Shown here piece by piece: positions 48,017 through 50,697 of a DNA stretch of 64,000 nucleotides (its first letter is position 1; the number at the start of each line of letters is the position of its first letter). The notes beneath the pieces were generated by a model. The model made no database searches, was not told the origin of the DNA, and was given only the letters and a program-made list of their open reading frames with translations. Source of the stretch: Thermoleophilum album (GTDB lineage Bacteria > Actinomycetota > Thermoleophilia > Solirubrobacterales > Thermoleophilaceae); the NCBI RefSeq assembly GCF_028867705.1, contig NZ_CP066171.1, forward strand, positions 1,178,001-1,242,000, in the 5' to 3' direction. The translations under genes were made by a program, and so were the position numbers.

Positions 48017-48748
48017 TCAGCCGATCTCCTCGCGCAACACCTGGAGAGCGCGCCTGATGAGCCGCGACACGTGCATCTGCGAAAGTCCTACACGACGCGC
48101 GATCTCGGCCTGCGAGAAACCGAGCGTGAAGCGCATGTGCAGAATCTCGCGCTCGCGGCGCGGCAGCTGCTTGAGCGCCGGGGCGAGCGTCGCGCGTAGC
48201 TCGGAGCGCGCATACCCGGGCTCCTCGCCGCCTAGCGCCGCCAGAGCATCGGTCTCCTCCTCGTCCCCGCCGCCCTGGTCGAGCGAAGCCGGTGTGTACG
48301 CCGAGCCGAGCTCGAGCGCTTCGATCACCTCTTCGACGCTCGTTCCCAGCTCGCGCGCGAGCTCGCTCGCGCTCGGCGAGCGCCCGAGCTCGGCGCCGAG
48401 ACGATCGACCGCGGCGACGACCGCCGCATGTAGCTCCTGCAAGGCGCGCGGAACGCGCACCGCCCAGCCGCGGTCACGGAAGTGGCGGCGGATCTCGCCG
48501 AGGACTGTCGGTGTCGCGAACGTGGCGAGCGAGACGCCGCGCGAGAGGTCGAAACGGTCGATCGCTTTGATCAAGCCGATCGCGCCGACCTGTTCGATGT
48601 CCTCGACCGGTTCGCCGCGCCCCGCGTAGCGACGCGCAAGGGCGCGCACGAGCGGCAGATGGCGCTCGATCAGGAGCTCTCGGGCCCGCCGGTCGCCGTG
48701 CTCGTGGTACCGGCGCAGAAGCTCGCGGTCCACGGCACCGGCTGCCAT
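48017..48748 (-). CDS. RNA polymerase sigma factor, SigB/SigF/WhiG-like group
   Basis: 243 residues with regions 2, 3 and 4: LVRALARRYAGRGEPVEDIEQVGAIGLIKAIDRFDLSRGVSLATFATPTVLGEIRRHFRDRGWAVRVPRALQEL (region 2), LGRSPSASELARELGTSVEEVIEALELGSAYTPASLD (region 3), and LPRREREILHMRFTLGFSQAEIARRVGLSQMHVSRLIRRALQVL (region 4). No region 1.1. This is the group for stress, sporulation or motility genes. A ribosome site (GGGAGG) lies inside the end of the preceding anti-sigma-like gene, 3 bp away, so the pair is coupled. Confidence 0.94.
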   Translation of the reverse strand: MAAGAVDRELLRRYHEHGDRRARELLIERHLPLVRALARRYAGRGEPVEDIEQVGAIGLIKAIDRFDLSRGVSLATFATPTVLGEIRRHFRDRGWAVRVPRALQELHAAVVAAVDRLGAELGRSPSASELARELGTSVEEVIEALELGSAYTPASLDQGGGDEEETDALAALGGEEPGYARSELRATLAPALKQLPRREREILHMRFTLGFSQAEIARRVGLSQMHVSRLIRRALQVLREEIG

Positions 48749-48750
48749 CG

Positions 48751-49215
48751 CTAAACCTCCCTGCGCTCCAGCTTCTCCAGACGCAACGACAGCGCCGAGC
48801 CGCGCGTCTCGACAGCGAACACGTCGACGACGGCGGCAACGATCGTGCGCAGCGACGGCAAAGCCTCCCTGCCAGCGGTACGCGGATCCCGAACACTCCC
48901 CTGCTCGCCCGCCGTGCTCTCGGGCGCCGCGAAAAGCTCGCGCAACGTCGCCGGCAGACCGTCGACCGTAGCTCCGACACGCCCGGGTTCGAGGTCGAAC
49001 GCGACGCGTACCGGCAACGCGGGATCGCAGGCGGCGAGGATCGTTTCGAGCGCTAGCTGGAGGTCGTCGGCGGCGGCGAGCGTCAATTCCGCGCGCGCTG
49101 CAAGGGCGGCGACGAGCATGCGCAGCAACGGGTCGTCGTCGAACCCGAAAGTCGACTCGAGCACCACACGCTCACCGGCTTGCGGCGCGCCGATCCCACC
49201 TGCCTGCTCGCTCAC
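48751..49215 (-). CDS. Degenerate RsbW-like anti-sigma protein
   Basis: 154 residues from GTG 49215. The first half has the start of a GHKL anti-sigma fold (DDPLLRMLVAALAARAELTLAAADDLQLALETILAACDPALPVRVAFDLEPGRVGATVDGL), but the N-box residues and the DxGxG and GxGL boxes of ATP-binding kinases are missing. The last part (LPSLRTIVAAVVDVFAVETRGSALSLRLEKL) resembles the terminal strands of that fold. Position directly before the sigma gene supports a sigma-controlling role without kinase activity; this is inference. Confidence 0.72.
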   Translation of the reverse strand: MSEQAGGIGAPQAGERVVLESTFGFDDDPLLRMLVAALAARAELTLAAADDLQLALETILAACDPALPVRVAFDLEPGRVGATVDGLPATLRELFAAPESTAGEQGSVRDPRTAGREALPSLRTIVAAVVDVFAVETRGSALSLRLEKLERREV

Positions 49216-49219
49216 CGCT

Positions 49220-50683
49220 TCACCGCTCCCAACCGGCGATCGTCGCCGCGCCGAGCACGAACTCCCCTGTCGCGTCGAGGAGGCAAGCGGTCTGACCGGG
49301 CGCGGGGGCGGGTGCTGGCTCGGCGAGCTCGATCGAGAAACCGTCGCCAGAGCGAACGAGGCGGGCGGAAAGCGGTCGCTGGCGGTAGCGCAACTGGACC
49401 TTGCCGACCCGGTCGGCATCGCGGTGCAACACGAGGTCTTCGGCGAGCGCCACACGGCGGGCGAGCAGCTCCTCGCGCCCGCCGACGACGACGCGGTTGT
49501 GGCGCGCATCCTTGGCCAGGACGTACAGCGGCTCGCCAGCCGCGAGCCCAAGACCGCGCCGCTGACCGACCGTGTACAGCTGGTGGCCTTCGTGCTCGCC
49601 GACGACGCGGCCCGCGCTGTCGACGATCTCGCCGCGACGGATGTTGCTGGCGGCATGGCGGCGCAGGAAACGGCGGGTGCCGAGCCCGGCCACGAAGCAG
49701 AGGTCCTGGCTCTCGCGCCGTTCGGCGACCGGCAGCTGCGCGCGGCGGGCGATCTCGCGCACCTCGCGCTTGCTACGCGTGCCGAGCGGGAACGACAGCC
49801 GCTCGAGCAGCTGCGGGCTAAGGCGCGCAAGCATGTACACCTGATCCTTGCCGCTGTCGCACGCGCGCCGCAAAAGCACCCCCTCGCCGTCATCCTCGAC
49901 GCGGGCGTAGTGACCGGTCAAGAGCTTCGCCGCACCGAGGGTGTCGGCAGCGGCGAGCAGAGCGTCGAAGCGCACCTGCCCGTTGCACACGATGCACGGG
50001 TTGGGAGTGCGACCGGCGTCGTGCTCGCGCAGGAACGGTTCGACGACACCGGCGCGGAAGCGCTCGCGCAGATCGAGCGTGAAGTGCGGCAGGCCGAGCC
50101 GGTGGGCGAGGCCGCGCGCGGTCAGAACGGCCTGCGGCGAACAGCAGCTGCGCTCGGGATCGGTGTCGGGGTGCGACCAAAGCTCGAGCGTCACAGCGAC
50201 GACCTCGCGCCCCTCCTGCGCGGCGAGCCAAGCGGCGACGGCGCTGTCGACCCCGCCGGACAAGGCGACGCACACCCGTCGCGGATCGGGTGCAAGAGGC
50301 GCAGCGCCGTCGGCAACGGCACGCCCGAGCGCGCGGTGCAAAGCATCAGCGGCGAGCACGGCGGCGTGCCACTTGCCCGGCGTCAGGCCGCCGACGTGGG
50401 CGGACACGTCGGCGACGCCGATCCGCCCGGCGGCGAGCACGCTGCGTCCCTCGACGAGCTCGACGACCGCTGCGGCACACGCCCGCGCCGCGCCACAGCC
50501 GTGCGCGTCGAAACCGACCTCGGCCACGACGCCGTTGTCGCAGCGTACGGCGATGCGAACGCTGTCGCCGCAGGGAGCTCCGCCCGCCACACCAGCGTGC
50601 GGCCATTCGGCGAGCGCGCCAGCGCCGCGCCGCGAGCGCAGCAGCTCGTCGAAGCGTTCGCGATCGGCGACCGAGGCTTCCAC
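49220..50683 (-). CDS. mnmA: IscU-like domain fused to tRNA 2-thiouridine synthase MnmA
   Basis: 487 residues from GTG 50683. Residues about 1-125 resemble an IscU/NifU scaffold: APCGD (C38), FDAHGCGAARA (C63) and TPGKWHAAVLAADALHRAL, where the third scaffold cysteine (normally HC) is Ala107. Residues about 135-487 are MnmA, which thiolates U34 of Glu, Gln and Lys tRNAs: PP-loop SGGVDS (142-147), CCSPQAVLTARGLAHRLGLPH, NPCIVCNGQVRF (C230, C233), GHYARV, GKDQVYMLARL, and SQDLCFVAG (catalytic Cys329). GTG 50683 is preferred because TACCCT lies 8 nt before it; TTG 50692 is the longer option. Anti-sigma and sigma genes follow within 5 bp. Confidence 0.93.
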   Translation of the reverse strand: MEASVADRERFDELLRSRRGAGALAEWPHAGVAGGAPCGDSVRIAVRCDNGVVAEVGFDAHGCGAARACAAAVVELVEGRSVLAAGRIGVADVSAHVGGLTPGKWHAAVLAADALHRALGRAVADGAAPLAPDPRRVCVALSGGVDSAVAAWLAAQEGREVVAVTLELWSHPDTDPERSCCSPQAVLTARGLAHRLGLPHFTLDLRERFRAGVVEPFLREHDAGRTPNPCIVCNGQVRFDALLAAADTLGAAKLLTGHYARVEDDGEGVLLRRACDSGKDQVYMLARLSPQLLERLSFPLGTRSKREVREIARRAQLPVAERRESQDLCFVAGLGTRRFLRRHAASNIRRGEIVDSAGRVVGEHEGHQLYTVGQRRGLGLAAGEPLYVLAKDARHNRVVVGGREELLARRVALAEDLVLHRDADRVGKVQLRYRQRPLSARLVRSGDGFSIELAEPAPAPAPGQTACLLDATGEFVLGAATIAGWER

Positions 50684-50691
50684 AGCGCCCA

Positions 50692-50697
50692 AGGGTA
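50692..50697 (-). promoter_or_regulatory. Putative leaderless -10 box of the mnmA fusion
   Basis: TACCCT on the minus strand is followed by 8 nt and the GTG at 50683. It overlaps the alternative TTG start at 50692, which argues against that start. Confidence 0.4.

What the first reader, a model, noticed from the sequence alone, without database searches (positions are those of the whole stretch)
49220..50683. IscU-like scaffold fused to MnmA, with the third scaffold cysteine lost
The N-terminal domain keeps C38 and C63 but has Ala at the position of the third IscU cysteine. MnmA here has a CXXC pair (C230, C233) plus the catalytic Cys329. The fusion suggests that tRNA thiolation uses an iron-sulfur cluster or sulfur held on the fused domain, bearing on the debated role of clusters in MnmA.
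Basis: partly seen in the sequence, partly recalled or inferred. Interest (0 to 1): 0.7.

Follow-up and report, generated by a model that had tools for sequence, protein, structure and literature searches.

The report
Scaffold-derived domain fused to tRNA-thiolation enzyme
A tRNA-thiolating enzyme (MnmA) carries at its front a domain derived from an iron-sulfur scaffold protein (IscU) that has kept its metal-binding residues but lost the cysteine known to accept sulfur, so it probably docks the sulfur-supplying enzyme and hands sulfur to MnmA instead of building iron-sulfur clusters.

Summary
On the minus strand (49220-50692) one open frame joins a NifU_N/IscU domain (E 1e-17; predicted IscU fold, Z about 18-20) to a complete C-type MnmA. 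Cys38 and Cys63 are present and Ala107 replaces the third cysteine. The fusion is the normal state of mnmA across the order and recurs in several further families sampled from the same phylum. In 70 fused proteins from six families, C38, D40, C63 and H106 are at least 99% conserved while position 107 is never Cys. In ISCU those four residues bind Fe2+/Zn2+, and the next cysteine is the persulfide acceptor. So the domain kept the metal site and lost the sulfur acceptor: a cluster scaffold is unlikely. The window's genome has SufU and a SufU-type SufS, no TusA and no recognisable IscS. Most likely the domain is a metal-containing docking arm that brings the desulfurase to MnmA, possibly relaying persulfide on Cys38 as SufU does. 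Other families lost other ligands, two lost all, yet the domain stays under purifying selection in most, so docking may be the shared role. The nearest published parallel is a SufE-like domain on apicomplexan MnmA. I found no published account of this fusion. Mechanism is inferred; no biochemistry exists.

The parts
49220..50692 (-).
50327..50623 (-). NifU_N (IscU-fold) domain, aa 21-119
   Evidence: fold
50570..50572 (-). Cys38 (IscU C37 / ISCU C35 / SufU C40-41 position), predicted metal ligand and candidate persulfide carrier
   Evidence: 99% conserved in 70 fusions; alignment; PMC8924461, PMC10216065
50564..50566 (-). Asp40 (ISCU D37), predicted metal ligand
   Evidence: 99% conserved
50495..50497 (-). 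Cys63 (ISCU C61), predicted metal ligand
   Evidence: 100% conserved
50366..50368 (-). His106 (ISCU H103), predicted metal ligand
   Evidence: 100% conserved
50363..50365 (-). Ala107 in place of the persulfide-accepting cysteine (IscU C106 / ISCU C104)
   Evidence: never Cys in 70 fusions of six families
49688..50278 (-). MnmA PP-loop (HUP) domain, aa 136-332
50141..50146 (-). Cys180-Cys181 pair typical of C-type MnmA
   Evidence: 100% conserved; class definition in PMC11784392
49985..49996 (-). Cys230-x-x-Cys233 of MnmA
   Evidence: 100% conserved
49697..49699 (-). Cys329, equivalent of catalytic E. coli MnmA Cys199
   Evidence: 100% conserved
49481..49672 (-). MnmA PRC-barrel domain, aa 338-401
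49238..49402 (-). MnmA C-terminal beta-barrel, aa 428-482

Best explanation
It is a MnmA (tRNA 2-thiouridine-34 synthase) with an N-terminal domain derived from an IscU. The domain keeps the four residues that bind Fe2+ or Zn2+ in ISCU (C38, D40, C63, H106) and has lost the cysteine that accepts persulfide for cluster assembly (now A107). Proposed mechanism: the metal-loaded domain docks the cysteine desulfurase (SufS in this genome, the neighbouring IscS in family f19). The metal helps draw the desulfurase's persulfide cysteine, or the His of the SufS HPHD motif, into the site. The sulfur is then handed to MnmA, either through a persulfide on Cys38 (as on SufU Cys40/41) or straight to MnmA Cys329, without ever forming a cluster on the domain. 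Shown: the fusion, the fold, the residue pattern, the gene inventory, and an IscS gene directly upstream of the fusion in f19. Inferred: metal binding, docking, and the transfer route.
For: IscU fold: Pfam, PDB sequence match E 6e-15, predicted structure matching IscU at Z about 18-20. In 70 fusions from six families C38, D40, C63 and H106 are four of only ten N-domain positions conserved at 97% or more, and position 107 is never Cys. The same four residues are the metal ligands of free ISCU, and Cys104/Cys138 is the specific persulfide acceptor (PMC8924461; PMC11021402). In SufU the first cysteine of CGD is the acceptor after the zinc swaps to SufS His354 (PMC10216065). The window genome has SufS over its NCBIfam cut-off (541 against 475.1) with HPHD and GHHC motifs, SufU, no TusA, and no IscS-type match better than 2e-21. 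In f19 IscS ends 4 bases before the fusion starts (L103). Some f19 genomes carry the same acceptor-less IscU as a separate ORF next to mnmA. Purifying selection on the N-domain is like that on MnmA (dN/dS mostly 0.07-0.4).
Against: Families f5, f12 and f69 keep the fusion with part of the tetrad gone, and f7 and f30 with all of it gone, so the metal site is not essential to every fused enzyme. Cys38 is also lost in f7, f30, and one member each of f12 and f69. No experiment shows metal binding, desulfurase contact or sulfur transfer. B. subtilis YrvO and P. falciparum SufS are thought to feed MnmA directly, without a relay (PMC10219651), so an arm is not strictly needed.
Confidence: 0.5

Rival explanations
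1. Docking or structural domain only: the IscU-derived domain binds the desulfurase or stabilises MnmA, and neither metal nor its cysteines take part in chemistry.
For: f5 (keeps one cysteine) and f12 (no Asp) still have a recognisable, selected NifU_N domain; f7 and f30 have lost every ligand but keep an N-terminal extension.
Against: In six families the four ligands are nearly invariant while most of the domain varies (10 of 127 positions at 97% or more); a pure docking domain would not need C, D, C and H.
Confidence: 0.25
2. A working Fe-S scaffold: the fused domain assembles a cluster with C38, D40, C63 and H106 as ligands and passes it to the MnmA Cys triad, or uses it for sulfur activation.
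For: Four ligands could in principle hold a [2Fe-2S] cluster; MnmA has been reported to bind [4Fe-4S] through its own residues (reviewed in PMC11784392).
Against: The acceptor cysteine needed for cluster assembly in ISCU is absent in all 70 core fusions; families with no ligands keep MnmA; cluster dependence of MnmA is itself disputed (PMC11784392).
Confidence: 0.12
3. A metal or redox sensing switch: the domain loads Fe2+ or Zn2+ and gates thiolation, competing with SufU for SufS so that cluster synthesis and tRNA thiolation are balanced.
For: Metal tetrad kept without the acceptor; SufU and the fusion coexist with one recognisable SufS in this genome; IscU and TusA compete for IscS in E. coli (PMC2854127).
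Against: No regulatory element or variant found that points to sensing; f19 has an IscS gene next to the fusion.
Confidence: 0.1

Closest known systems
IscU / NifU_N scaffold proteins (ISCU, clostridial NifU, PDB 7c8m)
   Same: Fold, CGD and GC motifs, conserved His; best NCBIfam relative is clostridial NifU (62.8 bits).
   Different: Third cysteine (persulfide acceptor) gone; fused to MnmA; scores far below the IscU, NifU and SufU equivalog cut-offs.
SufU, zinc-dependent sulfurtransferase partner of SufS
   Same: Proposed way of working: metal site docking on SufS, first cysteine as carrier; this genome's SufS has the HPHD histidine used in the zinc swap.
   Different: Histidine instead of the third zinc-ligand cysteine; scores 30 bits against a cut-off of 92.5 for SufU; the true SufU is a separate gene.
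Apicomplexan MnmA with a SufE-like N-terminal domain (PMC10219651)
   Same: Sulfur-acceptor-type domain at the N-terminus of MnmA, proposed to take sulfur from SufS; SufE and IscU/NifU folds are related (own knowledge).
   Different: SufE-like rather than IscU-like, without the metal tetrad (own knowledge of SufE); eukaryotic organelle; the relay role there is also only proposed.
YrvO-MnmA of Bacillus subtilis
   Same: C-type MnmA served by a desulfurase without the Tus relay; a desulfurase gene lies beside the fusion in f19.
   Different: B. subtilis MnmA has no IscU domain (own knowledge).

Membership tests
MnmA (tRNA 2-thiouridine-34 synthase) | Full-length match over the curated equivalog cut-off | tested here: met
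   PRK00143.1 344.4 bits (cut-off 284) and TIGR00420 291.1 (cut-off 236.95), aa 136-482
MnmA (tRNA 2-thiouridine-34 synthase) | C-type cysteine pattern CC-CxxC-C | tested here: met
   C180-C181, C230/C233, C329, each 100% in 70 fusions; class definition PMC11784392
IscU-type Fe-S scaffold | NifU_N fold | tested here: met
IscU-type Fe-S scaffold | Three conserved assembly-site cysteines | tested here: not met
   third position is Ala107; never Cys in 70 core fusions
IscU-type Fe-S scaffold | Metal-site Asp and His | tested here: met
   D40 99%, H106 100%
IscU-type Fe-S scaffold | Score over curated IscU/NifU equivalog cut-offs | tested here: not met
   iscU 53.7 against 192.4; NifU_clost 62.8 against 187.9
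IscU-type Fe-S scaffold | Assembles and transfers a cluster | not testable with these tools
   needs purified protein
SufU | Score over curated SufU cut-off | tested here: not met
   30.2 against 92.5; the genome's separate SufU scores 101.3
SufU | Zinc-ligand set of three Cys plus Asp | tested here: not met
   set here is Cys, Asp, Cys, His
SufU | Sulfurtransferase activity with SufS | not testable with these tools
   only the partner SufS with HPHD/GHHC motifs was found

The most novel reading that the evidence does not exclude
An unrecognised route of sulfur delivery to MnmA, beside the Tus relay and direct transfer from a dedicated desulfurase: an IscU-derived, metal-gated arm built into MnmA that takes persulfide from SufS or IscS on Cys38, having lost the cysteine needed to make clusters.
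Probability: 0.4. Interest if true: 0.68.

Novelty: new variant of a known kind. Interest (0 to 1): 0.52.

Why it matters
How sulfur reaches MnmA without Tus proteins, and whether MnmA needs an Fe-S cluster, are open questions. This is a natural experiment: evolution tethered a scaffold to MnmA and, across whole families, kept its metal site while removing its cluster-building cysteine. That gives a clean prediction (metal yes, cluster no) that a purified protein can test, and a set of families with graded loss of ligands to compare.

Tried and rejected
Chance ORF or assembly artefact: rejected, as the fusion is unbroken in 49 of 61 relatives. Change private to this genome: rejected, the loss of the third cysteine is family-wide. 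Scaffold replacing a missing IscU/SufU: rejected, every fusion genome of the order that was searched has a second, separate NifU_N gene. Loss of the cysteine as a consequence of fusion: not settled; f19 has acceptor-less copies as separate ORFs, but the tree places them inside the fused group, so they may be later splits. Fusion in the phylum of locus L058 (an Acidobacteria MAG): no clear case in the listed matches of 119 genomes, where MnmA and NifU_N lie apart. That search was prompted by free-standing acceptor-less IscU relatives (L057-L060). Literature: no paper found for the fusion terms searched.

Full report
What is there. The gene lies on the minus strand, 49220..50692, and encodes about 490 residues. 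Residues 21-119 are a NifU_N domain and 136-482 a complete MnmA with its three domains. Residue numbers below follow the GTG start at 50683. C38, D40, C63 and H106 are present. A107 stands where the third IscU cysteine would be (alignment to PDB 7c8m). MnmA carries C180-C181, C230/C233 and C329, the standard C-type pattern (PMC11784392; conservation). The predicted structure gives the N-domain with pLDDT 86-94 over residues 41-120, and it matches solved IscU structures (Foldseek E about 1e-8; Z about 18-20).

How widespread. A match over the whole fused protein occurs in 49 of 61 genomes of relatives (my count from the table; a few of these matches hold one stop codon); most of the rest are fragmentary or cut by contig ends. 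It occurs in about 69 of 396 genomes drawn from the phylum (my count from the table, in which weaker matches are not listed). The tool names no groups; a named Solirubrobacterales MAG carries the fusion at 53% identity (L061), so the order is probably Solirubrobacterales. Fused families: f1, f2, f3, f77 (the order), f4, f5, f6, f8 (same class), and f12, f19, f51, f69 (same phylum). f7 and f30 have an N-terminal stretch that Pfam no longer recognises. f25 has the three genes separate and in order iscS, iscU with three cysteines, mnmA (L068-L070). f19 has iscS directly upstream of the fusion (L103), and some f19 genomes have the acceptor-less IscU and mnmA as two adjacent ORFs (L097, L135-L137, L139). 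This points to an operon iscS-iscU-mnmA as the source. A tree of the domain groups all fused and split copies apart from free IscU and SufU, but with weak support (74/53).

Which residues are kept. In 70 fused proteins of f1, f2, f3, f77, f4 and f19, the tetrad C38, D40, C63, H106 is 99-100% conserved, while position 107 is Ala in 80% and never Cys. Only 10 of 127 N-domain positions reach 97%; the four ligands are among them (about 2 in 100,000 if ten positions were drawn at random, my arithmetic, ignoring kinship). Other families differ. f51, f8 and most of f6 keep three Cys and Asp but lost the His. f5 keeps only the first Cys. f12 keeps the second Cys, mostly the first, and lost the Asp. 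f69 keeps the second and third Cys. f7 and f30 lost the cysteines and His. The N-domain evolves under purifying selection of the same order as the MnmA part (dN/dS 0.07-0.53 against 0.07-0.42 outside f7 and f30), including in f5, f12 and f51; it looks looser in f7 (0.57) and f30 (0.38). So the domain is useful in most lineages even where the metal site has changed.

What the residues do elsewhere. In free ISCU, Fe2+ or Zn2+ is bound by exactly these four residues (mouse C35, D37, C61, H103; human C69, D71, C95, H137), and the next cysteine (C104/C138) is the specific persulfide acceptor on the way to a cluster (PMC8924461; PMC11021402). In SufU, zinc swaps from the first cysteine to a histidine of SufS, freeing that cysteine to accept persulfide (PMC10216065). 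The fused domain thus keeps the metal site and the SufU-type acceptor position, and lacks the cluster-building acceptor.

Partners in this genome. A second NifU_N gene is a three-cysteine SufU in a sufC-sufU-sufB-sufD cluster (L107). One desulfurase passes its family cut-off, SufS (541 bits against 475.1), with HPHD and GHHC motifs matching H352, H354, D355, H371 and C373 of the M. tuberculosis enzyme (PMC10216065). Two other class V aminotransferases fall below every desulfurase cut-off. No TusA is found, although the same search rings in E. coli and others. An IscS query gives nothing better than 2e-21 here, nor an IscS-like full-length match in the other 18 genomes of the order searched (the one at 3e-34 is a 142-residue piece), whereas f4, f5, f6, f12, f19, f25 and f51 have clear IscS-type hits. 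The genome is about 96% complete on one contig, so absences are likely but not certain.

Most likely working. The domain is a docking arm for the desulfurase that keeps a bound metal ion. Sulfur then goes to MnmA either through Cys38 or directly to Cys329. Cluster assembly on the domain is unlikely. P. falciparum apicoplast MnmA has a SufE-like domain at the same end and depends on SufS (PMC10219651), an independent parallel. The fold, residue pattern and gene inventory are shown; metal, docking and transfer are inferred.

Novelty. Both domains are known families; the combination, with family-wide loss of the acceptor cysteine and retention of the metal tetrad, is a new variant. The held literature gave no account of it, but most subscription papers are not in that library. 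The fusion itself would be visible to anyone reading domain databases, which limits the interest.

Noticed in passing
L057 5986-6348, L058 5974-6333, L059 2928-3281, L060 924-1322: Free-standing IscU-like proteins in Acidobacteria/Terriglobia MAGs and one unnamed MAG keep C-D-C-H and have Ala at the acceptor position (HAAVLAADA), with no mnmA or iscS found next to them; an acceptor-less IscU also exists outside the fusion.
   Followed up: partly
L097, L135, L136, L137, L139: In family f19 the acceptor-less IscU and MnmA are sometimes two adjacent ORFs instead of one, with breaks close to the linker; real fission or MAG frame errors could not be told apart.
   Followed up: partly
L084, L088, L092 (f7) and L078, L079 (f30): MnmA with a short or drifted N-terminal extension in which no Cys or His ligand is left and Pfam no longer sees NifU_N; looks like the end stage of decay.
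   Followed up: partly
window 48017-49242, minus strand: Directly downstream lie a protein without family match (163 codons read) and a SigB/SigF/SigG-type sigma factor (48017-48748); by position the first could be its anti-sigma factor.
   Followed up: no
G000:C1 around 1990000 (L107) and 1567803 (L112): The SUF cluster of this genome is sufC-sufU-sufB-sufD, with sufS about 420 kb away, whereas several other genomes of the order have sufS beside sufU.
   Followed up: no
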